64,000 bases of DNA from assembly GCA_002104985.1 (NCBI GenBank), contig MCGO01000005.1, positions 496,001 through 560,000 of the forward strand, read 5' to 3'. The notes beneath the pieces are model-generated. The model searched no databases. It was given only the letters and a program-made list of their open reading frames with translations, and had not been told where the DNA came from. Of the stretch, positions 39,312 through 64,000 are shown in pieces (positions within the stretch are counted from its first letter, which is position 1; each line of letters opens with the position of its first letter). The position numbers were made by a program, and so were the translations under genes. The DNA is from Rhizoclosmatium globosum (lineage: Eukaryota > Chytridiomycota > Chytridiomycetes > Chytridiales > Chytriomycetaceae).

Positions 39312-40834
39312 ATGCCCCTTGGCCACACCCCCTTGCGTCTGCGATTGATGCAACTTGGATCAACCGTGATCCACGCGATTCCATCTATCGCTGTGATAGG
39401 ATCAGTGCTACTTGTTGGCGTTCATCTTGGGAGTGATCTTGACACCAACACTGGTGCCCAATTCGCATGGACGTCGATCTTAACGGCATATACTTACGCA
39501 GAAGCTGCTTTCTTGATCCATTTCTACGCTCAACGCACCATGTTGCAACGTCCCCAACTCGCACCTGTTTTGGGATTTGAAGCGCGGAAGGTTGTTTGGA
39601 AGCGGATCTTGGAGTACCCGGATCTCAAAATGTTTATCGTGGGTTGGTTCTATTGGAAACTTTCTCAGCACCAGCTCTCAATCAATGAATTTGGTGAGAT
39701 TCATGCCGAAAACTTCAAAGATTGGTAAGAGAGTTCCTTTAACTCCTAGATACAAACAGTTTTTACAGGCTCGCTTGGGTTATGTTTTCAGAGTCCTGTT
39801 TCGAAGATGCACGGAGAGATGAGAGCAAAATCCAAGAAATGGATGCGTTGATAAAGAACTTGAAGCATACAAGAAACATTGAATTCCCAGTAGGCCGAAA
39901 CAAGAATATAACGAACGTGAAGCTTAACCATAACACGGTGGAAGCCTATCCTAAACCGTTTATTTTCTACCTGGTGATGAAGTTGTTGGAGCTTGTTGAG
40001 TCACTATTTCTAATGTTCCTGGGTTTCGATCACTTCGTATCAAATGGAAATGGATTGAACTATTGGGCTCACCATCCTGTAAGATGCGATGATTCGGCCG
40101 TGCCATTGGTGTTTATACATGGGATCGGTGTTGGATTATTCCAGTATCAACTGTTCATCTACAACTTATGGAAGACTCAAAATCGCCCCATCTTTTTAGT
40201 GGAGCTTCCATATGTTAGTATGCGCCTTTCTGCGAGGGTACCAACTGTCGAAGAAACAGTTACTGAAATTGAAGGAATGCTGGAAGCTCATGGCTTCTCC
40301 TCGGCACATATTGTGGGGCACAGTTGGGGAACGGCTGTAGCAGCATGGATGATTAAACTTAGTAAGTTCACGGTTTCAAGTGTTTTATTGGATCCCATCG
40401 TCTTCTTTGCCATACTTCCGGACTTGGCTTTCAATTTTGTGCACCGAAACCCAGGGCACAACACAAAGCACGCACGCGCGAATGAATATATGTTGCACTG
40501 GATTTGTGCTCGTGAATTGCATATCTCTATACAATCAGTCGCCATTTCAGTTGGCACCATAATCTTTTGTGGCCCGATGAGCTTCCTGTAAATCATCACA
40601 TATTTGCAGCTCGCGATGATATGTTATTTGATGGGCGTGCCATGGAGAAATGTAAGATATTTCTTCCCACTTTTCTTTCCTACTTTGCTAAATATCTGTT
40701 TTGCAGACCTTGAATCCAATGAAGTCAATCACACTATGTTTGATTTGGATCACGGCACGTTTTTGTTCATGCCCTCCAAGCAAGCTCAAATTATGGCACG
40801 AATTGCAAAAGTTTGCTCAGATGCCGAAAATTGA
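39312..40834 (+). pseudogene. Alpha/beta hydrolase array copy 2 (one frameshift)
   Basis: Second paralogue, starting MPLGHTPLRLRLMQLGSTVI. It keeps FIVGWFYWKLSQHQLS, AYPKPFIFYLVMKLLELVES, FIHGIGVGLFQYQ, a nucleophile motif GHSWGTAVAAW (Trp in place of Leu) and SVLLDPIVFFAILPDLAF. At about 40,525 the family sequence changes frame: the read continues to a stop at 40,591, while the expected SRHFSWHHNLLWPDELPVNH and the catalytic His region FDLDHGTFLFMP lie in the next frame. A single-base deletion explains it; no intron fits. The protein as read would lose the acid and His of the triad. It is either a young pseudogene or an assembly error. The final exon ends at 40,834. Confidence 0.75.
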
Positions 40835-40929: not shown

Positions 40930-42624
40930 ATGCCGGTTCCCAACACTCTGGCCATGCTCATTGCCGTGCGAGCAGCAGCACTTACCCTGGATGCGATACC
41001 AGTCTTGGCCATAGCATTTACCCTTCAGCAAACGTACCAGCTTCTTGTTGGAGATGTTGTGGCTACCCAATATGACAGCACAACCACATTAGGAACAATC
41101 AAGAGCATCCTCCCCTACTACTTCTCGATCGAGACCGCATTCCTAGTATACTTCTATTTGCAGAGTAAGCGACTACAGGCTCCTGTACCGCCTGCTCCTA
41201 TGTCAGTTGGGGAACGAGGGAAAATCTTCTACAAGGTTCTTGATTCGACAGGCACAAAGTTTGAAGAGTTCTTCAGCGGATGGTTTTATTGGAACAGCAC
41301 CAAGAGACAACTCACTCCCAGTGAACTCCATGTGATTCGTAGGGATAACATAAGGGACTGGTGAGTCTTTGGGTGGCTCTCACCTGTCCAATTAAGTGTC
41401 ATCAGCTGATCACCAAATCTCTCTTTGACAGGTTGGCATGGTCCTTCTTCTCCGTCAGCTCATATGCAGAACTTGAATCTGATCCAGAAAGAGTATCTGA
41501 ATTGAACGGTTTCATTGCAGATATGGAAATGATGAAGGGGACTCGATTCCATCCAGGAAAGAACCTCGACATATCACCAGTCATACTTAACTACAACCCG
41601 ATTGCTGCGAAACCGAAGCCACTGATTCTGTATGCATTCATCTGGAGCCTAGAAGCTTTTGGGCTCTTGTTAATGACACTCCTCGGCTTCAAACGAGTTA
41701 CTCCCATCGACAGACCATACCACCACGATTCTGAAGCCACCCTCAACTATTGGGTATATATGCCGAAATCCTATTCCGACAAATCAACCCAATCTCGCCA
41801 AGATGACAAGTTACCCATTGTGTTTTTGCATGGAATTGGATGTGGCCTGTTTCCCTATGTGCACTTCATTTATAGCATTATGAGCCACATGCGATTTTCC
41901 CGTCCGGTATTTGTCATTGAGTTTCCTCATGTCTCCATGAAGCTACACGACCACGTACCATCAACTGATCAAATCATTGGCGAATTCGAAACAATGTTGA
42001 TGTGCATGGCTTTTCCAAGGCGCACGTTATTGGACATTCACTGGGGACAACAATTGCGTGCTGGCTGGTCAAGTATTCCAAGTATGCTGCTTCTTGTGTC
42101 TTGTTGGATCCAGTTACATTTATGTACTTGCTTCCATCCTTGGCATTCAGTTTTGTGCATAGAAAACCAGGATATAACACTGATGTTACCAAGGCGGATG
42201 AATACCTGCTGTATTGGCTTTGTTCTCGAGAATTGTACACTGCAAACGCAATTACCCGTCACTTTCGTTGGCACCATTCTTTGATTTGGCCTGAAAACCT
42301 CCCAAAGAACCATCACGTTGTAGTTGGAAAACGAGATTTTTTATTTGACGGCACATCAGTGGCTGACTGTGAGTGTTTCCTCACAACGTTTTTATTGGAT
42401 ATTGCTTACTGTATCTTTCAGATCTCGCCGAGCACGATGTTGACTACAAGCTTTATGATACAGCTCATGCGGAATTTATGCTGAGACCCAGGATTACCAC
42501 AGAAATTGTTGCCAAGATTGCCCAAGTTTGCAACAGTGCCGATTTAGAATTTGCTTTAAGTAATGTGGCTGCGAAGTCAGTGCGCGGGAATGTGCGTAAA
42601 TCTGTGCGCAGACGCCGTGCTTGA
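40930..42624 (+). pseudogene. Alpha/beta hydrolase array copy 3 (one frameshift)
   Basis: Third paralogue, starting MPVPNTLAMLIAVRAAALTL. It keeps FFSGWFYWNSTKRQLTPSEL, RRDNIRDW, KPKPLILYAFIWSLEAFG and FLHGIGCGLFPYVHF. Near 42,000 the frame changes: ETML is followed by one base fewer than in copy 1, and the family sequence (MHGFSKAHVIGHSLGTTIAC, VLLDPVTFMYLLPSLAF, RHFRWHHSLIWPENLPKNHH) continues in another frame. The catalytic His segment LYDTAHAEFMLRPR differs from copies 1 and 2 (AHAEF in place of DHGEF). The C-terminal tail is Arg-rich. As read, translation would lose the nucleophile. Its 3' end faces RRN3 with about 130 bp between stops. Confidence 0.75.
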
Positions 42625-42753: not shown

Positions 42754-45189
42754 CTAACATGACATACTCATTTGATTCTCGAAGGAACTACTTATATAGT
42801 CAATATCGCTGTCTCCACCGCCACCCGCGGTATCTTCATCTTCAATCCACTCGTTGTACATAGGCTCGACGACTTTCTTTGACATAACCAAGTGACATGG
42901 GTCGAATGGAAAGAAGGCTTCTAAACAGGCACTTCCAAGGGTATCTTGAGGCTGGGCTTGAGTTGGATACTGCTGTTGTGGAGTGTTTCCCATTCGCTGA
43001 TTCAAAGTGGATTCTTGAACATACGACATGTTCATTGATGCATCCGGAGAGATAGAACCAGGAACTTCAGGCGAATAGGATGAAGAAGTAAACGAAGCAT
43101 AATTTGTTTGTGATTGGTTGGTGTGATTGTTGTTTATCCGAACAGCGCGCATGGGTTGTGATTGGGGAGGTCGAGGAGGCAGCAGTCCAGCTTGGGTTTG
43201 CTGAGCAGTAACAACAGGTTTTTGAATATGCGTGTAGCAATACAGCATATCAAGCTTGTGTGTAATCCTGGCGAACTCCGCAACGACGCTCTTGGTACAA
43301 ACCTATAGAATAAATGTTTTCAACGAATACCCGCCAGCCAAATTGGAAAAACGAACCTTCAATGGCTGAAACCGTGATTGAACAAGTTTTTGAAAGCCGT
43401 TCATTTCAGCAGGTAATCGCCCGTATTCAACGTTACGGCCTTCTTCACCACCACTCACAACCCCAGCAGCATTGACGATTTCTTTCCAGCGAAAGCAAAA
43501 TACATACAACAAAGCCTGAATTACAGAGTAAAAACAGGCATGCGCCTTTCCTCCATCAAGCACAGCACCAACTTTAACGTTGGGTTCGTTCGCTTCCACA
43601 TAATTCAGTGCCCACCCGTTCATCATTTTTAGACAATATAGTACAGCTTCAATCTCGACAAACTTGGCTCGGGCCACGAAACTAGAGAGATACGCTGAAG
43701 CAGCGCATCGAATAATGGCCGGTGAAGATGTGTCAAACGTCTTCTGTGCAAGGAGGACTAAAAAAGCTTCTGTACAACGAGCCGACATACTACAAGCATG
43801 GAAGTAGAGAAATTGAACGTATTTGCACTGATGTGTAGGGAGAACCGTACGTTCAAAGATTTGAAGTAGGATTGTGAAGAATTCAAAGACTTCGTCACTG
43901 GTTTCCCCATAGTTTGCTGTTGATACGTTCCTTCGATTTGAAGAACCAGGACCAATTGGAGTCGTGGGAGAGTAAATATGAGTTAATTGTGTCAGGAGGA
44001 AGTGAAGCAGCGAATCTAATTTTCCTGAACTTATTCGAAAGTCCGAAACAACTGGAGGAGGGGCAGCATCATCTTCTTCTTCATCTGAATCGTCTTCAGA
44101 TTCAGATTCTTGATCAGAATCATCGTCATCCGGAGCTGTAGGACCACGAGGAGTATTTTGTGATGGTTCGTCATCTTCTTCGTCAAGACGTAACTCATCT
44201 GGCATGGCGGCGCCTACCCTCCCAGCAGAAGCAAATGTTTTTGGAGACATGAATGTGATGGATTCCCGATCATGTCCACTGGCATCAATGTCAAAGCAAT
44301 GTGCTAAAACTTGGTTGTAGTCTTCTTCACTCAAATCATCGAGAGCAGACTGAATTTCAACCTGAGTTCAGAATGTTTAGTGGCTCGTATCATACGTGTG
44401 AATGCTTACGTCTACTTGGGCAACCCTATCTATCGCCAAAGCCCACACTGAATTCCGCAAGACTGGAGCATATTCAACAATTCGAAATAAGTTTTTCAGG
44501 TACCAAAGATTATCCAGAACATCTTCCGATTTGTGAGGAAAGTTTTCGCTGAGAATGGACTGCATAAACGAAGGACCAGATGGAATAAGGCGAATGACAG
44601 CGTTTAGGACGGAATGAATTCGATCAAATTTTGTAGAGAGAGCAGCAGGAGATTCTTTTCCAGTTCGTGCTGTTGGTTCGGAGTGTGTGTTGAGTGATTG
44701 TCACTCCACAACAACAAAGCAACACACCATTTCGCAGGGCAGATACAAGAGACGCAACAACAGGCTGTACAAGTGAGGCATGTGCGCTGACTAAGTTTTC
44801 CACGAGGTGAGAATATTCCTTCACGATTCGCGTGTCAGTGAGGACGACAAACCAGCGATCCATTTTGAGGATTGCATCGACAAGCGGAGCACACGCGCCG
44901 ATCAAGGACACCTGCAACGTAAGGGCCGCAAGCCATTCACAGAGAGCATTCGGCGATAAACGCGGAGTGGGCGAGTCGCGTCCTTTATCTGCAGCAAAGA
45001 GCGATGCGAGCTATTATTGAAAGTCGAATCAGAGGATGATGCCTTCAAAGAACAAGCAGCAAAACAAACAGAAGCGAAAAGAGAGGCACGCACCCAAGCC
45101 ACGGCCGCCGTCTGATTCGCCACTTTTGTTGTTGCACTCGACTGGGCACACACCAGCCCAACAACTCGCGCCGCCGCCTCCGCCGTCAT
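42754..45189 (-). CDS. RRN3: RNA polymerase I transcription initiation factor Rrn3
   Basis: Rrn3/TIF-IA binds RNA polymerase I and makes it competent to start rRNA transcription; TOR and stress kinases control it in other eukaryotes. Minus-strand exons give ALCEWLAALTLQVSLIGACA, a HEAT-like helical region (HSVLNAVIRLIPSGPSFMQS, DVLDNLWYLKNLFRIVEYAP), an acidic loop with DDDDSDQESESEDDSDEEED that matches the regulatory loop of this family, then FTILLQIFERTVLPTHQCKY, VQFLYFHACSMSARCTEAFL, CAASAYLSSFVARAKFVE, and near the end LEAFFPFDPCHLVMSKKVVE. The last two are diagnostic. The 5' end is uncertain: the open frame extends upstream of the ATG at 45,189 through a Ser/Asp-rich stretch (NSDSESESESTD) to about 45,500, where no in-frame ATG is visible. 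It sits antisense between hydrolase copies 3 and 4. Confidence 0.9.
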
Positions 45190-45731: not shown

Positions 45732-47470
45732 ATGCCCATTGGTCATTCAATAATCAAGCTGGGACTACTGCGTATTGCTACAGGAACGATTGATTTGATT
45801 CCTGTTGCTGCCCTTGCCTTCTCTCTACTCCAACTCCATGGTCTCATAACGAATGAAGAATCTGCTCCAACCGCAAATCCACATACAGTGACTCTCACGG
45901 AGCTCTTTCAGATATATCTTCATCTTGAGGCCTTCTTCCTCATCTACTTTGTACTGCAGCGAATTCGTCTCCAACCCGCCATCCCGCCACCGCAAATCAG
46001 TGACCAAGACCGTGGAAAAATCTTTTATAGAGCATTGGATACGTCCGACACGCGGTTCAGGGAATTCTATGCTCCTTGGTTCATTTGGAAAAGTTCCCAT
46101 CGCCAACTTTCAGTTGACGAATTCGGTCTCATTCACAAAGACAACTTTTTGGATTGGTAGCTACTTATTTTAAGACCAACTCTCATTCAATTAACTATTA
46201 TTATGGACCAGGTTCTCTTGGCTCCTCTATGGTGCACCAAACTTTTCGGCACTCTCACCCAAGGACTCTGAGGAGCTCACAAACTTCCTTGCAGACTTTG
46301 AATTAGCAAAGGGGGTCAGAATACCCCCCGGGAAAAATCTGTCTATCGAGCCAGTGATTCTTTCGTTCAATCCAATTCGAGCTTATCCCAAACCGCTCTT
46401 GTTTTATGCTGGTGTCTCTTGTGTCGAATCACTGGGTCATCTATACTTGACATATCTCGGTTTCAAGCGGATTGTCTCTGCAGAAAGAAGATATTCTTTT
46501 GACCAGGAAACAGGCATTCATTATTGGGTCAGGCAACCATCAATTAAAGCTAAAATACAAAAGGGTCTAAACCATTGTGTAAGTCTTACTACGGCCATTC
46601 GAAAGTCTGACTTCCTGCAACCAGCTTTTTCCACGGAATCGGATGTGGATTGACTCCATATGCAAACTTTATATCAGAAATCATTCAGCACACCCGGACT
46701 CTCCTGTATTTCTGATTGAAATGCCGCATGTTGCAATGCGATTCGTTGATAGAGTTCCATCAATGTCACAAACCATTGCTGAAGTCGAATCCATGTTGGA
46801 CACTTATGGCTACTCCAAAGCCATGGTAATTGGGCATTCTCTAGGATCTGCTTCGTAAGAACAAGGCTGTTTTGATTCTATTAAAAAATTGTTGTTCAGG
46901 GCGCATGGATGGTCAAAAACTCCAAATATGTTGAATCCAGTGTATTGCTAGATCCTATCGTTTTTATGACACTGCATCCATCGTTATGTTACAGTTGAGG
47001 GACTTTGTTTTGGTCAATCAGTACTAATCGCGAAATAGACTTTGTTCATCGTCATCCCGGCCGCAATACAGCCACTATGAAAGCAAATGAATTTATGATG
47101 CATTGGCTTTGTTCCAGAGAACTTCATATTTCTTATACCATATCGCGACGTGAGTTTTCAACCAAAACACCAACGCTGACGGAATCCGCAGACTTTATTT
47201 GGCATCAGTCGTTGCTATGGGCGGACGATCTTCCTCAAAACCACCACGTCGTCGTCAGTAAACAAGATTTGTTGGTTGATGCCGGAGTAATTGAAACATG
47301 TAAGTTTAACTCTTAACATCGGATGAATATTTATCGAACATCTTCCAAAAGACTTGGTAAGGGAAGGTGTGAACCACACGGTTTGATATTGACCACGGCG
47401 AGTTCCTTTCACACCCAAAATTCAGAGTCAGATTTGCAAAACAATTGCGAAGTGTGCATACAGACAATAA
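45732..47470 (+). pseudogene. Alpha/beta hydrolase array copy 4 (frameshifted)
   Basis: Fourth paralogue, starting MPIGHSIIKLGLLRIATGTI. The N-terminal membrane block, SVDEFGLIHKDNFLDW and AYPKPLLFYAGVSCVESLG are intact. At about 46,690 FFHGIGCGLTPYANFISEII breaks frame before PVFLIEMPHVAMRFVDRVPS; GHSLGSAS then follows. Near 47,380 two bases found in copy 1 are missing (AACCACACGG then TTTGATATTGACC), so the catalytic His segment DIDHGEF is out of frame. Around 46,990 an intron with a TACTAAT branch-point-like site is needed to reach FVHRHPGRNTATMKANEF. The 3' part is very similar to copy 1 even in an intron. Two separate shifts make a pseudogene likely, though assembly error is not excluded. 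Confidence 0.75.
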
Positions 47471-49601: not shown

Positions 49602-50978
49602 ATGAGCAAGGATATTCCCGGACGAATGGATGACAAGGCTAAACCATTAATGTCACCACAACAAGCACAATTCCTTTCGCATCAGCAAGAACAACAAACT
49701 GAAGCTTATATGGCTGAATATTATCAACCAACGGAAGCTGAAATGCAGCGCTACTACCAGCAACAGCAGCAATACCAACAAACCAAACCAATACTCAACC
49801 ACATTCCAGGATCGCGACCGATCCCCCCTGCAATAGAAATTCCAAGTAGAGACCAATATATTGCTACTAAGGAATCAGAAAATCCTGAGGAGATTCTTAC
49901 CCCAAAATCAAGGCCTTGGGTTCAACGTTATCTTTGCTGCTGCTGTCCGAAGAAAAGAAAGCACAGAATACTTTGTTGCGCAGCTACAGTATCGATTTTG
50001 ATTGCTATCGGCGTCCTTTTGTACTTCTATGTACCACGGTTTGGAATATTCTGTCAATAATTGGTTCCAATCTAATCAACTAATTCAAAGCTTTCCTGAC
50101 ATCAAAGTTTACAATATCAACCTCGAAAATATTGCGTCCATGTAACAAGTCAAAGACCAGTATTATTTCTAAATACACTTAATAGGAACACGCCATACTA
50201 TTTTTCGTACAAAGATCCCAATAACGAAGATTTAAATCAGCTTATTCTTAGAATGGTATGTCCGGGGCTCTCAATTGCATACATAACCTTGAATTTGTGC
50301 TCTGATAGAACCTCACAATGTATCTTGGCACATATAACCCCAATCTCTATGATCTTAAGGTGGATGAAATCAACTTGGTCGCCAATTTAGTGGTGAATCA
50401 GACGTTTGTGTACAATGCCCTCAAAACAAGTCCTTTGGTCACATTCTCCTCTCTCGTTCAAGCAATTGGGATACCAAAATCCCCGCTACCTGTAGGTTAT
50501 GTCCCGAGTAACAACTCTCAAATAGGGACTGCCAAAACAGGAAATATTCTGTTCCCATCCAAGACTTGGATCAATTGTAGGTAAACGCTTTTGTACTATT
50601 ATCTCACCAATCTGCATATTAGATACCATGATGTTTGAATTTGAATATTCCCCTGGTCCAGAAGGTCTTCTGAAGGATCCCACAATATTAGAACTTGCAG
50701 ACGCATGCGGAATTACGTCCAGGTATAAGCCAGCTGGAAGAAATATGAGAATTCATTACGATGCGCTCTCTACCATTGGTGTGTTGAAACCTTTGAACTA
50801 TGCACCTGGTGTATCAAACGAGTTACAAATTGTGTGTCCATTTTCGCAAGACCAAATCCAAGCTGTAATTCGAGAGGTTCAAGATAACGGAAAATCGCCG
50901 CAAGAGGCTATCGCCATTGTCTTCAAGGGCTCTCCTAAAAATGTGAACAAACGAGTTAAACTTGGCTTCACGTTCTAA
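49602..50978 (+). CDS. LEA_2-like type II membrane protein, array copy 1
   Basis: First member of the large tandem family. The cytosolic N-terminus is Gln/Tyr-rich (AEMQRYYQQQQQYQQTKP). The juxtamembrane RYLCCCCPKKRKHRILC precedes one hydrophobic helix (ATVSILIAIGVLLYFYVP). After a codon-splitting intron comes the external domain: FPDIKVYNINLENIAS, TMYLGTYNPNLYDLKVDEIN, LVVNQTFVYNALKTSPLVTF, SKTWIN-YTMMFEFEYSP, GLLKDPTILELADACGITSR, NMRIHYDALSTIGVLKPLNY and VCPFSQDQIQAVIREVQDNG. TYNPN-VD is the LEA_2/WHy-type landmark. All introns keep frame. The basic residues after CCCC suggest N-in topology, and N-x-T sites lie in the external part. Function unknown. Confidence 0.82.
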
Positions 50979-51167
50979 CGCTTAGCGCACCTTTCCTCAT
51001 CATCTTCTTTTATATCTGCGAGATTACGGGTACCCATCTTATTATATTGTCATCTATTTTGGTTTGTTGTTGTTATTCAGTGAGGCCAATCAGAAACACT
51101 CTTCCTTCCTCTTCCACTTGCAGAAGAAATCAAAACGAACCAGCCAGAAAATATCAACAGAAAAAGA

Positions 51168-52619
51168 ATGAGCAGTCATTCAGTCACAGCGGATACGCAC
51201 CAAAACGATACGGAAAAACAACAGTACCATTATCAGCAGGAGTATTATTACCCACAGCTGCAGCCCCAGCCTCAACCAACAACCAGTATCTTCAACAACA
51301 AATGTACAATCCTCAATACCAGCACTATACTTCACAACCACAAGGTTATTATTAAACCAACACACCAACCAACGGATGCAGCATCGGTTGCAGCAAGTGT
51401 CTCTCAAGTTCTTCAAACTGACTCAGATCCATCCAAAAGTGCTCTACCTGCAAACGAGTCAAGTACGGCCCTCGCGCCAGGAGGAATTCCAAGAACAAAT
51501 GCAATCCGAACACTTCCAGAGTTATACCGTGAGGAATCCATTATACCCATCGCATGGCGCAAGTATATTTCTCCAAACAAGAGAGCTATATGGAAAAATT
51601 TCTATGCTGCTGCTGTCCCAAAAAGAAAAAGTATCGTTTGATTTGTTGCGTTGGCGTGCTTGTTGTTTCATCGGATTGTCGTTGCTCTTGCGTTGCTGTT
51701 CCCTCAATTTCCAGACATCCAAATTTATAACGTAAATTGAGTAATGTGGCCAACTTGAGCACTCCATATCTCTTTACATATAAGAGTTGAGTATTTCACC
51801 TTTTCTTCATTAAATTTACCATGACCGGATTTTAGACCCAGATACGCCAGACTTGAATGAACTTATTTTAAAATGAATCTAACGATGGATCTTGGTACAT
51901 ACAATCCAAATCGATACGGACTCAATGTTGATGCCATTGATTTGGTGGTAAACTTGAGACTGCAATTCCTAATGCCCCTGACTTTTTTCACTTAGGCCAA
52001 GCTGTTCGTGAACCAAACAAATATTTATAGTACATTGAGAACAAATCAGCTTACTTCGTTCGCTTCATTGGTTGATGTGGTTGGTCAACCAAAGACATCA
52101 GTCCCACCAGGTTATTACCCCAGCAATAGTTCTCAAATTGGAACTGCTACGTACGGAAGTATTTACTTCCCGGCCAAAAGTTGGGTTAACTATACTATGA
52201 TATTCCAATTTTCATACACACCCGACCCAGTTGGATTATTGAAAGACCCAACGATTTTGGAGCTTGCTGATTCTTGCGGAGTTACAACACGGTACAAACC
52301 TGTTGGGCGTGCAATGAGGGTTCACTACGGTAAGGAGTGGCTATAATTATTTGATCGTTATTACTGACACTATTCATCAAGACGCGGCCTCAACATCGCA
52401 ATTCTGAAACCCCTCGGATACGCCCCAACTGTATCGGGAAACATTTACATCAACTGCCCGTTTTCACAAGTTAGTTTTAAGTGCTATGAAGGCATGCTGA
52501 CAAATAATGTTATAGGATCAGATACATGCTGTCATTGAAAAGGTTCAAAGTGGTATGAGTGCATTCCAAGCATCCAGACTGTGTTTGGTGGATCAACTAT
52601 CAATGGAAGTAGAACTTAA
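51168..52619 (+). pseudogene. LEA_2-like array copy 2 (many frameshifts)
   Basis: Second paralogue, starting MSSHSVTADTHQNDTEKQQY. The family parts are all present but spread over three frames: the Gln/Tyr-rich N-terminus, then NNQYLQQQMYNPQYQHYTSQ in another frame, then ASVAASVSQVLQTDSDPSKS back in the first, EKFLCCCCPKKKKYRLICCV in the second, and IVVALALLFPQFPDIQIYNV in the third. The external domain (TMDLGTYNPNRYGLNVDAID, SFASLVDVVGQPKTSVPPGY, YFPAKSWVNYTMIFQFSY, GLLKDPTILELADSCGVTTR) is open, but two further one-base losses occur near 52,393 and 52,572. This is the most damaged copy. A pseudogene is most likely; assembly errors would have to be unusually dense here. Confidence 0.72.
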
Positions 52620-52760
52620 TTACTCTGAGCAAAAGACAGATAAAATGTGTCTCATTTAATTAACATATTAAAATATCCATTTGGGAGTGAAACGGAAGGG
52701 GTGAGCGTGTGTTGGAGATTGCAACCAATTTGGCCAAGACACTTGTTGATCACCCAAAAC

Positions 52761-54665
52761 ATGTCGTCTCCTCCTCGCCAGCGCACACCTTCGCGCAGCA
52801 GAGGCCAGCCAACTCGACAGGCGTCGTCTCCTCGCAGTGGTAACGCATTCGACGATGATGTCGAAAACGTGGGCCTGAGCACACAAGCTTACGGTGGTCC
52901 CTCGCCAACCCGTCGTCCGTCTGAACGCAACGCCAATGTCAGCAACATCAATAAAACAGTACCAACAGCAGTGGCGGTTACTATCAGCCTCAATCACAGC
53001 CAGCGGAGAGACAGATGCGCAATCAAGTGCAACCTGTCCCTCCAGTTGCCACCAGCAGCCTTACCAAGCTCAGCAGCCTTACTATGCTCAGCAACAGTAC
53101 CAACAGCAACCGTACCAACAACAGTCATACCAGCAACAGCAGCAATACCAGCAACAGCAGCAATACCAGCAGCCACAGCAGTATCAGCAGCAATACAATC
53201 AACAACCTCAACAACACTACCCACAACCCCAACAAGGTGCTGCTCCGTATGCGGCCCCCTATGTGGGACAAGCTCGTGGAACCACTCCTCTCAATAACAA
53301 TGGGTATGGTGCAAAGAATGACTACGAAATGAACAATCTTAAAGCCATTGACGAACGTACTGGCATTTGGAAGTATCTTCCTGTCATTTCCCCAGCCGTC
53401 CAGCAAAAGATTGAAAAGTACCTCTGTTGCTGTTGCCCAAAGAGTAAGAAAGGTCGACTGATTTGTGGAGGTGTTACTTTGGTTGTTCTGATTGTTATCA
53501 TTGTAATTCTGTACATCTTCATTCCAAGGTTTGTTCCAAACTCTAAATGATTTGCATAACTAACATGAACGACAGATATCCAGAGATTCGTGTCTATGGA
53601 ATTGATTTGTCACAGATTGGAAAATCAGGATCTGCATACTCATTTACCTTCAAGGATCCCAATGTGAAAGACTTGAATACCATGAACTTCAAAATGAATA
53701 TGTCGATGTCGCTTGGAACCTACAATCCAAACCCTTACGATTTGTCGGTCGATGAGATCAATCTCTCTGCTTTCATGAATGTCAACCAGAGTGTTGTGTA
53801 TGACCCCCAGAAGACTTACCCCCTCACCTTCTTTGCTTCCCTTGTCGAAAAGGTCCCGGTACCAAAGAACATTCCCGTCGGTTACTATGGAAATAACAAT
53901 TCGCAAGTGGGATCTGCAAGTTACGGCAAAATTGTCTTCCCCTCCAAGGGAGTGGTCAACTTCACTATGACATTCCTACTGGATTATACTCCTGATCAGA
54001 CTCTTGGTTTGCTCAATGATCCAACCATCAGAGAAATTGCGTCGGTTTGTCGTATTACAGACCGTACCGGCCAGACCCGTCCAATGCGAATCGGATACAA
54101 TGCCCAATCTGTCATTGGTGCCCTCAAGCCTATCGGTTTCATTCCCACGCTCTCGGCTACGATCGGTATCAACTGTCCTTTCTCACCTGCTCAGATTGAT
54201 GCTGTCATCAAGAACGTTCAAAACGGACAAGATGTCATGACTGCACTTCAAACTGTATTCGGAGGAGGTGCTGGATCTGTTCCTCCACCAGTCGTGCAAG
54301 CGATTCCAGATACTCCCACGTCCAACTCTGGATCTAACTCTGGTTCATCTGGTTCTGGTTCCGGTGGTTCTTCTTCAGCTGGTACTGGAGGTAACACCGG
54401 GGATGTAAGCACGAATCCAGGATCATCCGGCAACAGTGGAGTAGGTACCGCTGTTGCAGGCACTGACGTTGCAGTAGGTACTGGAGCTGCAGTTGTGGCC
54501 ACTGCTACAGCTGGATCTGGTGCTGTCAATACTGCTGCAGGTGGAGGTGTGGTCACTGCTACGGCTGGTGGAGCTGATGGAGGTGGCGGAGGTGGTGGAG
54601 ATGTCACAACAACCACTGCAATTCCTCGAGCAGCGGTCGAGCCAACACTGGCTGCTCCAGCTTGA
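52761..54665 (+). CDS. LEA_2-like array copy 3 with long Gly/Ser/Ala tail
   Basis: Third paralogue. The N-terminus MSSPPRQRTPSRSRGQPTRQ is Ser/Arg/Pro-rich and then becomes Gln/Tyr-rich (YQQQPYQQQSYQQQQQYQQQ). Between about 52,945 and 53,060 the coding frame changes twice; either two small deletions or a poor intron (GTACCA to ACCAG, which would keep frame) explains it. KIEKYLCCCCPKSKKGRLIC and a long hydrophobic helix follow. The external domain is open: YPEIRVYGIDLSQIGKSGSA, MSLGTYNPNPYDLSVDEINL, GVVNFTMTFLLDYTPD, GLLNDPTIREIASVCRIT, NCPFSPAQIDAVIKNVQNG. The C-terminal tail of about 130 residues is rich in Gly, Ser, Ala, Val and Thr (SGSNSGSSGSGSGGSSSAGT), like a flexible or O-glycosylated stalk. 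Confidence 0.78.
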
Positions 54666-54788
54666 TAGTGGGCTTCATCTTTTTCTTTTCATTTAGACAC
54701 ATTGTTGATATATGATGCAGCTGAATAAATGTCAGTTCCTTCTTTCTTCTTGCTCTCGTTTTCAATCAAAACGAAAAATTTTGAACCA

Positions 54789-56547
54789 ATGAAGGCAAAG
54801 GATGATGACTTGCCGCCAGTGCCTCCCACAGACGAGATCCATGCCATTCCTGTAAACCACCAACAGCATCCTCAGTATCAATATGTTGACCAGCAGCCAG
54901 TTTACTTACAGCCTGGACAGCAACCTGTATACCCACCGGGCCAACCAGCCCCAAATGTGTATTACGCTCCAACTCCGACTCAGGGAGGGAACGATCAGTC
55001 CATTCAATACAATCCTTACATGGTTCAACAGCCATATGTCCAGTACGGCTTGTCCCCTGAGCAACAGCAGCAGGTCTACTACAATACCAATTTGGCTCAA
55101 CAACAATACGTTCAAGAATTGACCCCGGAACAACAACAACAAGAAGCATATTACGGTGCTTATGTAGCTCAGCAGCCATACGTACAATATGGATTGACTC
55201 CAGAACAGCAACATCAAACCGCGGACCAAGCTCCTTATCAAGGATACGCCCAGCAACATCAATACATCAACGAATCTGCTGGAGTCCCTATTGTGAGCCG
55301 CCTATCAGAGAAAGAGGTCGAGGAATTGACTGGCCGCAAGAAGAACTTATTCGGCATCCCTCCGCATATCGAAGACAAAATTGAAAAGTATCTTTGCTGC
55401 TGTTGTCCAAAGAGTAGAAAGGGTCGATTTATCTGTGGTGGTGTTACGCTGGTGGTTTTGATTATTGTTGGTGTTCTGCTTGGAATCTACTTCCCAAGGT
55501 GAGCCAAATTCTTGATACCCCTTTGTGCTTACAATACTATAATTTAGAATGCCACAAATCAAGGTCTATGATATTGACTTGTCTAATATCTTCGGTTCCG
55601 ATTCGCCATACCAGTTCACGGTTGACGATCCAGCAAACCCTAACTACAACCAGATGAATTTCAAAATGAACTTGACAATGCACGTCGGAACATACAATCC
55701 CAATCCCTACGATATGTATATTGACAAGATTTCGTTGAAGGCGTACATGGTTGTCAATACCTCCGTTGTCTACAGTCCTTATCTGACAACACCGTTGATC
55801 AGTTACGGCTCTCTTGTGAAAGTCATTGGCTACGCTCCCACCAAAACTGATCCAAACTGGTATGGAAACAATAACTCTTTGGTTGGAACTTCTAGCTATG
55901 GGTCAATTGTGTTCCCAGCAAAGTCAACCGTCAATTTTACGATGCTCTTCTTGCTCGATTACACTCCAGACAAGCAACTTGGTCTGTTGTCTGACCCTAC
56001 TGTGTTGGAAATTGCTTCGGCTTGTGTATGTTGCGATATTTAGTTATTTTTTGTAAACTCACTTTCGGTCATACAGGGTGTAACATCCAAATCAAACACT
56101 CGCAGGAAAATGACGATCCATTACGATGCAGAGAGTGTGATTCCCGCTCTTCAACCGATTGGTTTCAAACCAGTGCTTTCTAATGACCTTGGGATTCTCT
56201 GTCCTTTCTCCCAAATACAGATTGATACAGTTATTCGCAATGTCCAGAGCGGAATGTCTGTTATCGATGCTTTACACTCTGTATTTGGAGGAGGTGGACT
56301 TTCCCCTGCGTTGCCACCTCCTGCAGTTCAAGTTCCAGACGCAACCAGCGCTGTGGCTCCAACAGCGACCGCTGATCCTCTGAAAACAACTGTCGTTGCT
56401 GTGGAGACAACAGCTAACGGCGATGTCACCACTACGGGAGGAATTGCTGTCCCAACCACTGCTGACCAAGTTCGCACAACAAAAACTGCTGCAAAGGTCG
56501 GCAAAGAGACAACTACAAGACTGATGACGACTACCGTCGGCAAGTAG
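54789..56547 (+). CDS. LEA_2-like array copy 4 with Gln/Tyr repeats
   Basis: Fourth paralogue, intact. The N-terminal about 190 residues hold imperfect repeats of the type YMVQQPYVQYGLSPEQQQQ and YVAQQPYVQYGLTPEQQHQ, a Gln/Tyr/Pro-rich disordered region. KIEKYLCCCCPKSRKGRFIC and the membrane helix VTLVVLIIVGVLLGIYFP follow. After an intron: MPQIKVYDIDLSNIFGSDSP, LTMHVGTYNPNPYDMYIDKI, STVNFTMLFLLDYTPDKQLG, LSDPTVLEIASACGVTS, then KMTIHYDAESVIPALQPIGF and LCPFSQIQIDTVIRNVQSG. The tail is Thr/Ala/Val-rich. An alternative start at 54,729 would add MSVPSFFLLSFSIKTKNFEP; I chose the later ATG because other copies begin near an acidic or polar sequence. Confidence 0.82.
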
Positions 56548-56655
56548 AATGTTGCTTCCGAACTTCCACTATATTCTTAGACTCTTGCTTAATGCAATGT
56601 AGAATTAAATAAACGTTTTGTTCAGTTTCTTTGCACTGCCACAAATCAAAACCAA

Positions 56656-58018
56656 ATGGCGTCTGGTCCACCACAAACGGCTGGCCACCCTCAACTGACA
56701 GACCAAGGATTTCAGCAGTCTTATGTCCAAATACAGCAGCCGATCTATGTTCATGAGGGCCAGGTAGTGCAGGAACACAACCTGGGTTCATTCATGGCCT
56801 GCTTCACTGCATCCGCCGCCATCGGAAGCGGAGCTCCCCAAAGCAACATCTACCACCGAATTGAGGAGCATGCCGCTGTTGTTGGCAAGGACTTGCCGGT
56901 CGCACCAGAGCAAGTGTACACTCCAAGTCCTGAACCAATCAAAAAGAAGTCCAATGTCGAGCGATTCCTCTGCTGCTGTTGCCCCAAGAAGAGAAAGCAC
57001 AGATTCATCTGTGCCGGCGTCATTCTTGTGTTCCTGATTGTTATTGGTACTCTCATTGGGATCTACTTCCCAAGGTGATACAGTCACTTTTGGCTTTCGG
57101 CTGTTGACCAATTTCACAGATATCCTCAAATCAAAGTCTATGCGATTGACATTTCGAACATTGGAACTACTAATACACAGTACTCTTTCACTTATCCTGG
57201 TGTGTTGTACCTTGTTTCACATTCACCAACTCATCTTGCTTTTAGACCCAGAACACCCAAACTTGAACCAAGTTCGATTCCAAATGAACCTCACGATGTA
57301 CGTTGGAACTTTCAATCCAAACAGATACGATCTTCCGGTGGACCATATTGATATGACAGCGCAAATGTTGGCCAATCAAACCGTGTTGAACAGCAGTCTG
57401 ATGACACGACCGCTAAATGGTTACGGAAAACTTGTCGAAATTGTTGGACAATGGCCTCCGAGCAACGTGACTGTTCCAAAGGATTATAGCCCCTCATACA
57501 CTGCTCAAGTTGGTACTTCAAAGTATGGGTCCATCGTCTTCCCAGCGAATTCTTGGGTCAACTACACCATGACTTTCAATCTCGATTACACTCCAGACCA
57601 AAATGTTGGACTCCTTCTCGATCCAACGATTATGGAGATGGCCTCAGCTTGCGGTATCACCGACCGTACTGGTAAACAACGACCAATGGTGATTGGTTAC
57701 AACGCCGCTTCTACGATCAACTCATTGAAGGCGATTTTCACTCCTACCATCTCTGGGTCCCTTAAAATCACCTGTCCGTTCTCCCAGGATCAAATCAACT
57801 CTGTGATTGAAAAGGTGCAGGCTGGAGAAGACGCTTTCCAGGCGATCCAGGAGACGTTTGGTTCTGGTGGTGTAGCTGGACCAAAGAATCCAAACCCCAT
57901 TCAGGACTGGGAAACTTGTGCCGCTACAACTGACATTTGTGCGTCTAATGGTTTCCGTTGTTGTGTGGCGCCTGCTGACGCTGGTGCTGGAAAACTAACT
58001 TGTCGTGATGTTTGCTAA
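56656..58018 (+). CDS. LEA_2-like array copy 5 with six-cysteine C-terminus
   Basis: Fifth paralogue, intact across two introns. The N-terminus is shorter and less Gln-rich (GHPQLTDQGFQQSYVQIQQP). The anchor reads RFLCCCCPKKRKHRFICAGV then a hydrophobic helix ending GIYFPR. External domain: YPQIKVYAIDISNIGTTNTQ, MYVGTFNPNRYDLPVDHIDM (Phe in place of Tyr in the NPN motif), LANQTVLNSSLMTRPLNGYG, SWVNYTMTFNLDYTPDQNVG, LDPTIMEMASACGITDRTG, ITCPFSQDQINSVIEKVQAG. After a Gly/Pro link comes a module with six cysteines, WETCAATTDICASNGFRCC and KLTCRDVC at the end. No other copy in the window has it. Confidence 0.82.
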
Positions 58019-58186
58019 ACCTCACCATTTAATTGTTTACGTCCTCATCATTTCTTTTTTTCAATTACCTGCCCAATGGCCTCATTCAAATTATCTACTT
58101 TTATTATTTCTTCCTTTTTGATTGATTGAATTCATTCGGTCGCACCTTGTTTTGTTTTTTGCCAGCCCCTTGCACTTGCCACAAAC

Positions 58187-59437
58187 ATGAACAAGGGTGT
58201 TCGAGGGCAGCCCAGAAAACATCCGCGAATGTCTTCTACCAGCTCAGAAATGCGTTTGCTGGACGATACCAGTGTCAGGCATTACTCTGTCCATCCGTAC
58301 GAAGCCGCTCCAGTTGAATCCGATCAGTCGTCGGAGCCATCGATGCGATCGGACCATCACGAAGGATACTTAATTGTGACGCATGAAGATTTCCTTCCTC
58401 CAATTCAGAAAGAGTTTCTTCCCCCACCAATTGAATTTGATCATCAACTTGGGTTGGGGAAACGGCTCAAGTTTTCTGAACCGCCGCGACGATGCGCTTC
58501 CTGCTGCTGTTGTCCTAAATCAAAGAAAGGAAAGATTGTCTGTTGGTCAATAGTTTTGACAGTGCTGGTAACTGTTGGGGTGTGCTTGGCCTCTTCTTTC
58601 CAAGGTACACTCTTGACTGAATGACAGTCAACTTGTATTCTAACAGACAAATCAAGATACCCAGATACCAAAGTCTATGACATTGTTCTCACAAATCTTT
58701 TTGGAAGTTCTTCTGCCTTTAGCTTCAGCTTCAAAAATGGATCTGATTTAAACACTCTTGTTTTCAAAATGAACCTCACTCTAAATTGTGGTACTTATAA
58801 TCCAAATATGTACGGAATCACTGTTGACCAAATCGACCTTGTTGTAAGTATTTTCGCTGTCTTCGCGATTTCTAATAACAAAAAGGCACAAATGATGGTC
58901 AACACCTCCTACGTCTTCAGCAACTACTTGACTAAGCCTCTTACATCATTTGGTGCTCTGACTCAACTTGTCGGACCGCCACCAGTGAATCCGTTCCCCG
59001 ACACTTATTTTGGAAGGAATGACTCTGTGATTGGAACGGCACAGTCTTTGTCCCCTATATTCTTCCCAAGTAAGCAGTGGGTCAATTACTCGCTCAACTT
59101 TGAGCTTTCGTACACTCCCGACCCTTACTTGGGAATCTTGCGAGACCCCACTATTTTGGAAATTGCTGACGCATGTGGAATTACGAGTCGTTATAAACCA
59201 CCAGGCCGTGGAATGCGAATTCATTACACTGCCGTATCCACGATTGCAGCTTTCAAATGGCTGAATTTTGCGCCATCGCTACAGAATGATGTAAACATAA
59301 TTTGTCCTTTCTGGCCGGATCAAATCGAAAAAGTTATCTCATACGTTGAGAATGATGGACTGCCGGTGCTTGAGGCATTGAAGATTGTTTTTGAAAACGC
59401 AAAACCTCCTCCAACCAATACCACGTCCTCCTCGTAA
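58187..59437 (+). CDS. LEA_2-like array copy 6
   Basis: Sixth paralogue, intact. The N-terminus is polar with acidic and Pro segments (EDFLPPIQKEFLPPPIEF) and lacks Gln repeats. The anchor is RRCASCCCCPKSKKGKIVCW followed by a hydrophobic helix. The intron from 58,603 (GTACAC) to CTAACAG joins in frame to DKSRYPDTKVYDIVLTNLFG. External domain: LNCGTYNPNMYGITVDQIDL, MMVNTSYVFSNYLTKPLTSF, SKQWVNYSLNFELSYTPDPY, LRDPTILEIADACGITSRYK, IICPFWPDQIEKVISYVEN. The last residues are Pro/Thr/Ser (KPPPTNTTSSS). It groups with copies 7 and 8 by the shared PPPVNPFPDTYFG-like loop. Confidence 0.82.
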
Positions 59438-59597
59438 TATACCCCTTTGATGTATTTATTTTTTCGTTTTTATTGCATGCCTTTTCTGCATTTCCTTAAA
59501 ATTATCTTTCTTAATTCTGTGGGGTTCAACTTGTACAGTTGAAATTGCATGTTTTCTCGTTAATTTACTTTCGACTTCTTACCCCAAACAAGAGAAC

Positions 59598-60732
59598 ATG
59601 AGTTACGCCAATGTTGCTGTAAAGGTCGAGCATAAGGAATCCAAGCAGAATCACATGCCTGAAGCTGTCAAGGTTGCTGACGAATTCACCTCAAAAGTCT
59701 TTGTTAAACCAAACCAATATCAATACAACCGTGAAAGCCATTCTTCTAATCTCTCAAGCACTGGTCTGTCCTTCTCTGGATTAACGGACCAGAACCCCGC
59801 ATTGTTGATTCCCAATTGGCAACTTTCTCCCGCCGAGGCTTCAAAACCATCTTCAAAATGGCAACGATGTCTCAACTGCTGTATACCCAGAAAGAAGTCT
59901 AATCGTATCATCTGCGGGGTTGTAGTACTCACCCTCATTGTCTCTGTCGCGACGCTTCTTGGAATCTACTTCCCCCGCTTTCCGGAAATCAAAGTCTACT
60001 CCATAGACTTGTCAAACATTGCAGGAAGAAACTCTGCGTTCCATTTTAGCTTTCCGAATGGAACTGACGATCTCAACTCAATCGAAATCCGAATGAACCT
60101 AACAATGCAGTTGGGAACGTATAACCCGAATCTGTATGGACTTAATGTGGATAAGATTGATTTAAATGTGAGTTTTGAAAAACGGGAGACGATTTGATTC
60201 TAACCTGATTATTTTGTGATAAGGCACAACTTATGGTTAACACATCATACGTGTTCAACTCTCTTAAGACCAATCCATTAATGTTATTTGGCTCGCTTAT
60301 TTCAGCCATTGGTCTTCCACCAGTGAATCCAAATCCAAACTTTTCGGAAAGAATGATTCGACAATCGGAACGGCAGAAACAAACTCATCGCTATATTTTC
60401 CTGCTCGGAGTTGGCTAAATTATACCATGCTGTTCCAGTTTTACTACACACCAGACAAATATTTGGGGTTGCTGAAGGATCCAACCGTCCTCGAGCTTGC
60501 CGACGCATGTGGAATTACGTCCAGATATAAGCCACCTGGCCGTCCAATGAAGATTCAGTATACTGCCAAATCTACGATACCTGAGTTGAAGATTTTCAAT
60601 TACGCGCCAATTCTTTCTGGAGATTTGCATATCGTGTGTCCGTTCTCTCAGGAGCAAATTCAGGCTGTGATTGACAGTGTTCAAAAAGAAGGAAATACTG
60701 TGGCAGAAGCTTTGAAGGTGGTATTTGGCTAA
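59598..60732 (+). pseudogene. LEA_2-like array copy 7 (one frameshift, altered Cys motif)
   Basis: Seventh paralogue. It starts MSYANVAVKVEHKESKQNHM and has a modified anchor RCLNCCIPRKKSNRIICGVV, with the CCCC run reduced to CC. The usual intron after the membrane helix is absent: YFPRFPEIKVYSIDLSNIAG is continuous. The external domain includes LTMQLGTYNPNLYGLNVDKI and LMVNTSYVFNSLKTNPLMLF. At about 60,343 one base is missing compared with copy 8, so FFGKNDSTIG is read in a wrong frame to a stop at 60,418, while LFQFYYTPDKYLGLLKDPTV and VCPFSQEQIQAVIDSVQKEG continue in another frame to 60,732. It may be a young pseudogene or an assembly error. Confidence 0.75.
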
Positions 60733-60886
60733 TGAGTTGCAAGTAGTTTATAATTGAAGGGCTGACGACGAAGAAGTTCTGATGGCTAATTAATAAATTT
60801 GATTGATAGTTAAAAGCGGAATTGAGAAATTCAAGTTCGACAAGGGCGGCGGCCAAGCAGAGTTGTTTTTTTGTTCACCAGATTGG

Positions 60887-62191
60887 ATGTCTCCCCATCT
60901 CACCCACGTCGACTCGCAGGCGTCCTTACAGCCACTTGTATCGGCAAACAATGACAAGATGGAGACTCCAGTCGTTCGAAATGATCAGGCACATCTGAAT
61001 CAGCCGTCCACCTTCCTTGTTAGCCAAGAAACGTCAGGAACAGCGTCACACTTGCCCAACGAAGGTGCATCGACATCAGAAAGCACTGGAATTGCAATTC
61101 CCAAAACACTTGCAAAGCATTTAGAGCCTTCTGGCGTTGAATCAGCTCTCCCTGAGAAGACCAAACCAAAGCCCAAATGGGAGAGATACCTCTGCTGTTT
61201 TTGTCCAAAAAGAAGATTCACCGAATCATTTGCGGATCAGTTACGTTTGCAGTGTTGGTGACGATTGCGGTGTTGGCCTGGTTCTACTTCCCAAGGTGAT
61301 TTACTTACTCATGTCCTGTTTTGAATCTAACTGTCTCTTACCAAGGTTCCCGGAAATCAAAGTGTACTCGTTGGATCTTACAAACTTGGCAAACAGCAGC
61401 TCTGCGTATCGTTTTACGTACTTGAATGGTAGCAACAACTTGAACCAAATCGAGATCCGTATGAACCTTACCATGAACCTTGGAACATATAATCCGAATC
61501 CATATGGATTGTTGGTAGATCGCATTGACGTCTCCGCACAAATGATGGTCAATACGTCATATGTGTTCAGCGACTACTTGACAAAGCAATTGACGTCCTT
61601 TGGGTCAGTTGTAGAGAAAGTAGGACCCGCACCTGTAAACCCTTTCCCAGATACGTATTTTGGAAAGAATGATTCAGTTGTTGGATCGGCGCAGTCGACC
61701 TCTGCTATTTACTTTCCACCTAAGGAGTGGCTAAATTACACTCTAAATTTCGAGTTGTATTATACACCCGACAAGTATTTGGGGCTCTTGAAAGACCCAA
61801 CTGTTCTGGAGCTTGCTGACGGGTGTGGAATTACGTCAAGGTACAAGCCTCCTGGACGCCCCATGCAGATTCATTACACGGCCACGTCACAAATTGGGGC
61901 CTTGAAGTGGTTGAACTATGCACCATCTCTTTCAAACGGGCTCAAAATTCGATGTCCTTTCAGGTTCGTTTTATCATGATATTTGGTGTTGTACTCTTAC
62001 TAATCACATTTGTTATCGGTGATAGTCAAGACCAGATTGATGGAGTTATCAATTACACTGAACAAGGATATTCTGTTGAAGATGCCATCAAGATTGTATT
62101 TGAAGGTGCGCAAATTCCACCACCTAACTCAAGCCAGAGCCAAAGCAGCGATGCATCAAATTCCACTTCTTCATCTACTTCTTCATTTTAA
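60887..62191 (+). pseudogene. LEA_2-like array copy 8 (frameshift in the membrane anchor)
   Basis: Eighth paralogue. The start is taken at MSPHLTHVDSQASLQPLVSA; METPVVRNDQ at about 60,959 is the alternative. The N-terminus is Ser/Thr/Pro-rich. The anchor WERYLCCFCPKR breaks frame at about 61,213, where one A is missing; the expected IHRIICGSVTFAVLVTIAVL and WFYFPR follow in the next frame. After an intron the external domain is open: FPEIKVYSLDLTNLANSSSA, MNLGTYNPNPYGLLVDRIDV, MMVNTSYVFSDYLTKQLTSF, PPKEWLNYTLNFELYYTPDK, LKDPTVLELADGCGITSRYK, RCPFSQDQIDGVINYTEQG. A Ser/Asn tail ends the protein. The break would remove the external domain from the translated product. Confidence 0.75.
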
Positions 62192-62346
62192 GAACTCTCC
62201 TTTTGAATCAAATTGATTATTATTGCATTTTGGGTCAAGGGAGAATGTCAACATTTTTTCATTTGGGAGGCACGCCCTGTTCGAAACCCCCAATTTTTTG
62301 CACGCCTCCCTTCACACCAAAACCAATTAGCAACCTTTCCTAAGGA

Positions 62347-64000
62347 ATGTCGCAACGCACACCCTCGCGCAACCGCAGCCGCAACAACAACAACAACTAC
62401 GCCGGTGGCAGTGGCAACGACTACGAAAGCGAATCGCCGGTGCCGCGCTCGGCCTCGCACACAGCTAGATCGCAACGCAACGACACCAGCGACAGAGACA
62501 GAGACCGGTCGCAGCGGACTTACGACTACGATGCCGATGCGCCAGAGTGAGTGTTTGAGTGCCAGAGTGTGTCAGATGTGTCAGATGACGGTGGTGCTGA
62601 TATGGAGTGGAGGTGTCTCAAAGAGTTGTGCATTCACTTGGCTGCTCTTCGTGATAGACTGGAGCTAGCTTGAGAATGCGATTTGAACTTAGACGTAGAC
62701 AGTATGGAGAGCTGGAGGGGAGCTGCGATACAGTATCACACTTTACTGACCCTCCCTTCAACTTCGCACCAGACCCCGCCAAAAGTCTTCCCGCAGCAAG
62801 AACCAAACCAACTACGACGAAGATGCTGGGGACGACTACGTTTCTCGCAAAGACTCCTCAAAGAACAGAGACAGAGGTGATCGCAAAGCCGCTGCCTCTC
62901 CTCGTGACAAAGACGATTACTCTTCTTCTCGTCGAGGAGGCCAAGAAATGGCAATGACCACCGGAGCAGTTGCTGGTGCGAGCGTTGGAAGTGCAAGCAG
63001 AAAGAAGTATAACAACTCGGAATACGACGATTACAATCAGGATGATGCAACCCAATACGATAATCCTTATGGCAACAATAACAGCAGAAACAATGATAAA
63101 TGGGGCGAGAAAGAAGAGTACGATATCAAGACCAACAACTCTGATCCTTATGGACAATATCCCGACGAGTATGATCAATACGGATACGAGTACCCTGCGT
63201 CTAACGAGCCAAGATGGAAAGTCTTTATGGAAAAATACCTCTGTCGCTGCTGCCCCAAGAGCAAGAAGCACAGGATCATTTGCGGAGTCGTTGTTGGCAT
63301 TGTTCTTCTCGCCATCATCATTCCCCTTGCCATCTTTTTCCCTCAGATGCCAGACATTCGTGTCGTTTCCATCAGTTTGACCAACGTTGACAAGGGTGCT
63401 TACACTTTCACGACCCCTGACAACAATGGCAACTTGAATCAAATGACTCTTGGTTTTTCTTTGGAGATGCAACTTGCCACCTACAACCCCAACATGTATG
63501 GACTCAATGTTGACTCCATCAACGTTTATGTAAGTTTTTGAATTCTTTATAGCAGGAAGATTCTAAATTATATTTCTTCTTTCAGGCTCAAATGATGGTC
63601 AATACTTCTTACGTTCTCAATGCCAACAAAGTGTCTCCGCTCACTTCATTTGCTTCTCTCGCTCAAATCGTTAACGAGAAGGGACCTATTCCTCTTGCAA
63701 CCAAGAAGCCTGCAGATTATAAAGCGTCATTGACCCCCCAAATCGGAACTGCAAACACTACTGGCATCTTCTTCCCTTCGAAACAGTGGGTCAACTACAC
63801 CATGACCTTTTACTTGAGTTACACTCCAGATCCATACGTCGGGTTGCTCAACGATCCTGCCATTATGGAAGTGGCTGATTCTTGTGGTATTACATCTCGT
63901 TATACTCCACGTGGAAGACCCATGAGAATCCATTATGAGGGAAAGAGTGTGATTGCTGCGTTGAAGCCTCTGGGTTATGCTGTGAGTGCGCTTATTTGTG
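62347..64000 (+). CDS. LEA_2-like array copy 9 (runs off the window)
   Basis: Ninth paralogue, partial at the right edge. It starts MSQRTPSRNRSRNNNNNYAG, with an N-terminus rich in Arg, Ser, Asn, Asp and Tyr in place of Gln. A longer intron (62,548 to about 62,771) joins in phase to PRQKSSRSKNQTNYDEDAGD, then DYNQDDATQYDNPYGNNN. The anchor is MEKYLCRCCPKSKKHRIICG with a hydrophobic helix (VVVGIVLLAIIIPLAIFFP). External domain: MPDIRVVSISLTNVDKGAYT, EMQLATYNPNMYGLNVDSIN, AQMMVNTSYVLNANKVSPLT, KQWVNYTMTFYLSYTPDPYV, LNDPAIMEVADSCGITSRYT. The frame is open to the end of the window, where another intron appears to begin (GTGAGT near 63,981). Confidence 0.82.

What the first reader, a model, noticed from the sequence alone, without database searches (positions are those of the whole stretch)
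49602..64000. Tandem array of at least nine LEA_2-like type II membrane proteins with a CCCCPK anchor
Nine same-strand paralogues share one unusual architecture: disordered N-terminus, CCCCPK(S/K)(K/R)K juxtamembrane motif, one membrane helix, then a beta-type external domain marked by (F/Y)P(E/Q/D)IKVYxIDLxN, GTYNPNxYxLxVDxI, DPTxxExAxxCGIT and CPFSxxQI. Known: LEA_2/WHy domains carry NPN-type motifs, and plant NDR1/HIN1-like proteins pair a basic Cys-rich segment and one helix with an external LEA_2 domain. Inference: this is a fungal family of the same layout, expanded in tandem and perhaps used at the cell surface in stress, recognition or wall contact. I cannot match it to a named fungal family.
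Basis: partly seen in the sequence, partly recalled or inferred. Interest (0 to 1): 0.87.

Follow-up and report, generated by a model that had tools for sequence, protein, structure and literature searches.

The report
Chytrid array of TMEM106B-fold membrane proteins
A water-dwelling fungus carries nine neighbouring genes for single-pass membrane proteins whose outer part is predicted to have the same shape as the outer part of the human lysosomal protein TMEM106B, and one of them carries an extra cysteine-rich piece also found on proteins that the fungus probably secretes, which suggests that at least some of them work at the cell surface.

Summary
In Rhizoclosmatium globosum, window 49602-64000 holds nine same-strand paralogues c1-c9; c10 lies 7.5 kb beyond c9 and c11 about 76 kb further. 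Corrections: exact CCCCPK is in 6 of 9; the assembled c2 has at least five frame breaks, c7 and c8 one each.

Modelled copies have a disordered N-tail, a Cys cluster with basic residues, one helix, then an external domain with conserved sequons and two near-invariant cysteines. Pfam LEA_2, TMEM106 and DUF3712 all fail. Models of c1 and c9 both find TMEM106B's luminal domain first in the PDB by Foldseek, with matching helix-strand-strand-cysteine order. So a LEA_2-type layout is supported by predicted structure, with TMEM106B nearest; profile similarity is only suggestive.

All 35 named homologues are Chytriomycetaceae; subtypes are shared between genera. c5 ends in a cysteine module with 92 further matches in this genome, some in secreted-looking, PAN-domain and mannanase-like ORFs; c3 and c4 end in long low-complexity tails. 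I favour an S-acylated type II surface glycoprotein family for wall or substrate contact; vacuolar lipid handling is the rival. Location and function are untested.

The parts
49602..50978 (+). c1, intact, 5 exons (49602-50038, 50091-50141, 50186-50255, 50309-50576, 50623-50978), 393 aa, = P0002
51169..52618 (+). c2, approximate limits; at least five frame breaks besides introns in the assembly
52936..54665 (+). c3, 2 exons (52936-53528, 53576-54665), 560 aa; N-terminal start uncertain; C-terminal Gly/Ser/Ala/Thr-rich tail
54789..56547 (+). c4, 3 exons, 552 aa; Thr-rich C-terminal tail
56656..58018 (+). c5, 3 exons, 423 aa; C-terminal cysteine-rich module
57881..58015 (+). c5 cysteine module (probe region); 92 further matches in the genome at E<=10, haplotigs and several modules per ORF included
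58187..59437 (+). c6, 3 exons, 388 aa
59598..60732 (+). c7; one frame break between 60337 and 60343; Cys motif reads CCIPRK
60887..62191 (+). c8; one frame break just after the Cys motif (CCFCPK)
62347..64000 (+). c9; continues to 64175 beyond the window; CRCCPK; 496 aa (deposited model P0003 starts later, 371 aa)
49932..49958 (+). LCCCCPKKR motif of c1 (others begin at 51602, 53422, 55392, 56968, 58499; variants at 59874, 61193, 63239)

Best explanation
The genes encode a family, so far seen in Chytriomycetaceae, of type II membrane glycoproteins. Shown by sequence or prediction: disordered cytosolic-side tail, Cys cluster plus basic patch beside one membrane helix, and an eight-stranded external sandwich with two conserved cysteines and N-glycosylation sequons, nearest in fold to the TMEM106B luminal domain (LEA_2 superfamily). 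Inferred: the Cys cluster is S-acylated and holds the protein in ordered membrane, at the plasma membrane; the external domain is a rigid platform facing the wall or the substrate; copies have diverged at their outer ends (c3 and c4 low-complexity stalks, c5 a cysteine module shared with secreted-looking proteins) so that the array gives a set of surface anchors with different outer contacts, while the cytosolic tails couple them to the cortex.
Confidence: 0.45

Rival explanations
1. Vacuolar or endolysosomal proteins that sense or carry lipid with the luminal LEA_2-type domain, as proposed for TMEM106B, Vac7 and Tag1; the array serves a vacuole-rich thallus and the handling of zoospore lipid stores.
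For: Nearest fold by Foldseek is TMEM106B. Two papers report the prediction that TMEM106B, Vac7 and Tag1 are lipid transfer proteins, Vac7 and Tag1 being vacuolar (passages). Immature R. globosum thalli have larger vacuole fractions than germlings (PMC8887899 passages).
Against: [quoted passage not shown] Long low-complexity tails and a cysteine module shared with secreted-looking proteins fit the cell exterior better. DUF3712 genes, the Pfam family I associate with Tag1 from memory, exist separately in this genome.
Confidence: 0.3
2. Membrane-anchored LEA_2 proteins for desiccation, osmotic or cold stress, like many plant NHL proteins.
For: Shared layout and similar NPN and helix-exit motifs with NHL proteins (PMC12223711 passages); LEA14 (1yyc) is seventh among the Foldseek matches of c1, E 1.2e-4. 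One homologue (P0009) is named 'Late embryogenesis abundant prot...' by a source.
Against: The LEA_2 profile gave no match at E<=1 for the four copies scanned and one match, E 0.34, among 33 members. Nothing that I saw links the genes to stress; no expression data were seen.
Confidence: 0.12
3. Fast-diversifying self or partner recognition proteins.
For: Tandem array, diverged loops and tails, and low-complexity N-tails.
Against: Subtypes are shared between genera and c10 alleles differ mainly at silent sites; both speak for conserved, not hypervariable, roles. The c9 alleles (4 silent, 3 replacement) are too few to judge.
Confidence: 0.08

Closest known systems
TMEM106B (TMEM106 family, Pfam PF07092), luminal domain 8b7d
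   Same: Type II single-pass layout, PR at the helix exit, Fn3/LEA_2-type sandwich, helix-strand-strand-Cys order with a Cys pair, several N-glycosylation sites; best Foldseek PDB match of both models
   Different: 14 and 12% identity in the VIA alignments; PF07092 not matched; no CCCC motif, a CxxC before the helix instead; lysosomal (passages); one strand fewer
Plant NDR1/HIN1-like (NHL) proteins
   Same: Disordered N-part, helix, external LEA2-type domain, NPN motif, P-rich helix exit; NDR1 is reported to act in plasma membrane-wall adhesion (PMC12223711 passages)
   Different: No significant LEA_2 profile match; FYQG motif not seen by eye; other kingdom
Fungal DUF3712 proteins (PF12505), which I associate with Tag1 from memory
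   Same: Membrane helix near the N-terminus, then LEA_2-like domains (partly recalled; ORFs)
   Different: Separate genes in the same genome with matches over the DUF3712 cut-off; the array does not match
Surfactant protein C propeptide (PF08999)
   Same: Cys-Pro-basic segment before a Val-rich helix (recalled for SP-C); 6 of 33 members match at E<=1, best E 0.00074
   Different: Judged local composition; SP-C has no such external domain (recalled)

Membership tests
LEA_2 (PF03168) | Profile score above the curated cut-off | tested here: not met
   Own genome 0 matches at E<=0.001, 2 candidates scored; four copies none at E<=1; of 33 members one at E 0.34
LEA_2 superfamily (fold) | LEA14/TMEM106B-type beta sandwich | tested here: met
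TMEM106 (PF07092) | Profile score above cut-off | tested here: not met
   Not among the 15 families that any of 33 members match at E<=1; own genome best 15.4 bits, on other contigs, cut-off 24
TMEM106 | Sequence profile similarity | tested here: inconclusive
   hhalign with 12 vertebrate TMEM106B (12 of 120 listed, 1277 found): local score 24.2, E 0.006, probability 6%, 34 columns; 0 of 150 column shuffles reach it, maximum 23.6; reversed 15.2; global mode 11.75 against a shuffle maximum of 10.7 but in another register. Single-sequence comparisons E 0.083 (same region) and 0.042 (another register)
TMEM106 | Cys pair joining the helix two strands before the C-end to the Cys after the last strand | tested here: inconclusive
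   Both Cys conserved and same element order (PMC10409496 passages); bond not measured
DUF3712 (PF12505) | Profile score above cut-off | tested here: not met
   Own-genome matches lie on C13, C23, C410, none on C366; none
Plant NHL | Motifs RPxxP, NPN and FYQG plus LEA2 domain | tested here: inconclusive
   NPN present; helix exit similar; FYQG not seen by eye; LEA2 profile fails
S-acylated type II proteins | Acylated juxtamembrane Cys | not testable with these tools
   Motif only

The most novel reading that the evidence does not exclude
Chytrids have a TMEM106B-type family that left the endolysosome for the cell surface and became a clustered set of wall or substrate anchors, each fitted with a different outer end. 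This would make an early fungal lineage a place to study what a LEA_2/TMEM106B domain does outside the lysosome.
Probability: 0.25. Interest if true: 0.72.

Novelty: new variant of a known kind. Interest (0 to 1): 0.5.

Why it matters
TMEM106B matters for brain ageing, yet its lipid-transfer prediction still awaits experiment (passages). A fungal family of the same predicted fold and layout, with natural variation of tails and anchors, gives material for asking what the domain does. It also gives a structural name to 35 Chytriomycetaceae proteins that NCBI calls 'hypothetical protein' (one is called late embryogenesis abundant by another source). No paper on it was found in searches of the open-licence library for LEA_2 with chytrid, for pairs among DUF3712/LEA_2/Chytridiomycota/TMEM106, or for CCCCPK (0, 0 and 1 unrelated).

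Full report
Source. The window is bases 496001-560000 of contig C366 (896,209 bases) of a 56.9-Mb genome. Deposited proteins on a contig of the same length, one identical to c1 and others matching parts of c9, c8, c6/c7 and c2, name it Rhizoclosmatium globosum, family Chytriomycetaceae.

What is there. Nine head-to-tail copies, all on the + strand, fill 49602-64175 (c9 ends beyond the window). Seven copies could be read in frame with GT-AG introns (c1, c3, c4, c5, c6, c9, c10); c1 equals the deposited protein exactly. Six exact CCCCP codon matches lie in the window, none in 100 shuffles; c7, c8 and c9 carry variants. c10 follows 7.5 kb after c9, past other open frames, and c11 lies about 76 kb further on the other strand. 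Probes from c3 and c11 found no other locus except contigs C232 and C313, whose compared parts are alternative copies of C366. The six-frame search scores only the best candidates, so still more diverged copies may be missed.

State of the copies. c2 shows at least five frame breaks beyond introns, c7 and c8 one each. The c2 reading is identical to a JEL0117 protein over 155 residues in three blocks, and contig C232 has single-base indels of its own in c8 and c9. Sequencing error and recent decay both fit. The C366 and C232 alleles of c10 differ at 30 silent and 11 replacement sites (pS 0.095, pN 0.011; 6 codons skipped); those of c9 at 4 and 3, too few to judge.

Architecture. N-tails of 104-222 residues are rich in disorder-promoting residues; each of the seven modelled copies has one hydrophobic segment, with 4-6 K/R in the 15 residues before it and 1-3 in the 15 after. 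The N-terminus is therefore predicted cytosolic. In alignment A3 (33 proteins) the sequons at c1 positions 216 and 275 are kept in 32 and 30 of 33 rows, Cys304 in 33 of 33 and Cys347 in 31 of 32. Outer ends differ: c3 has a Gly/Ser/Ala/Thr-rich tail, c4 a Thr-rich tail, c5 a cysteine module; some homologues have similar Ser/Thr tails.

The c5 module. A 45-residue probe of the c5 end gave 93 matches at E<=10 (the first is c5 itself; haplotigs and several modules per ORF are included), the weakest at E 0.049. Translations show it repeated, with Gly/Asn or Ser-rich linkers, in an ORF with a signal-like N-terminus (L029) and in L035; beside PAN domains (L042, L045) and beside a region matching an endo-beta-mannanase (4qp0, E 7.2e-8). 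The two ORFs scanned gave no Pfam match over a cut-off. By analogy with binding modules it may attach to polysaccharide or wall; that is inference.

Kinship. Profile search of a 5.8-billion-protein set found 36 proteins and a second round 8, of which 5 were new, 41 in all: 35 bear names, all from genera of which I looked up one species each, in Chytriomycetaceae; 6 are unnamed. The word-based search reaches only moderate distance, so wider relatives may exist. A tree of 36 rows (35 different) puts c1 and the c2 orthologue with Obelidium and Siphonaria proteins (97/93), c6 and c8 with Obelidium, Siphonaria and Podochytrium (99/97), and, less firmly, c9 with Podochytrium and Obelidium (88/77) and c3-c5 with four other genera (95/78). 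Four Obelidium proteins share a contig length of 383,306 bases and three Podochytrium proteins one of 122,827 bases with consecutive tags, so clustering is probably older than these genera. Many deeper forks are weak: 9 of 32 inner branches were starred, 13 open.

Mechanism. Shown or predicted: topology, single helix, sandwich fold, conserved Cys and sequons. Inferred: S-acylation of the Cys cluster, plasma-membrane residence, wall or substrate contact through the outer ends. For the surface: the c5 module and the c3/c4 tails, and the NHL precedent NDR1 (PMC12223711 passages). Against: TMEM106B, Vac7 and Tag1 are lysosomal or vacuolar (passages). I give the surface model 0.45 and the vacuolar model 0.3.

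Literature. R. globosum papers were seen as listings, one abstract and outline, and passages only; none of the passages shown mentions these genes. Supplements could not be read.

Verdict. Interest 0.5: a new family in a known fold class with an attractive, testable surface hypothesis, but no functional data.

Noticed in passing
L029, L031, L032, L035, L036, L042, L044, L045 (same genome): A roughly 38-residue cysteine module, 93 matches at E<=10 in this genome (c5, haplotigs and several modules per ORF included), in tandem in secreted-looking ORFs and beside PAN and mannanase-like regions; no Pfam match over a cut-off in the two tandem ORFs scanned. Possibly an undescribed chytrid carbohydrate- or wall-binding module; worth its own study.
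   Followed up: partly
L002, window coordinates about 73165-77271: About 4.1 kb present in contig C366 and absent from contig C232; its open frames look like a retroelement with a tyrosine recombinase (recalled, not searched). Present in one of two copies in this assembly.
   Followed up: partly
window 39743-40591, 41349-42484, 46999-47316: Neighbouring ORFs similar by eye, the first with an alpha/beta-hydrolase match (E 2.8e-6); the part 41349-42281 of the second gave none at E<=0.001. Perhaps another small tandem family before the array.
   Followed up: no
L015:3851-5157 minus strand (C366) and L016 (C313): c11, a diverged single copy with LCCCVPRNRK, 35% identical to c3 over the domain.
   Followed up: partly
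L001:2598-3215 minus strand: Small Ala/Thr-rich ORF between c9 and c10 that resembles a secreted cupredoxin (recalled; not searched).
   Followed up: no
window 2-703 (-), 15325-16437 (+), 32568-34472 (-), 43306-44367 (-): TauD dioxygenase, dynamin, PDR-type ABC transporter and RRN3 exons; ordinary neighbours.
   Followed up: no
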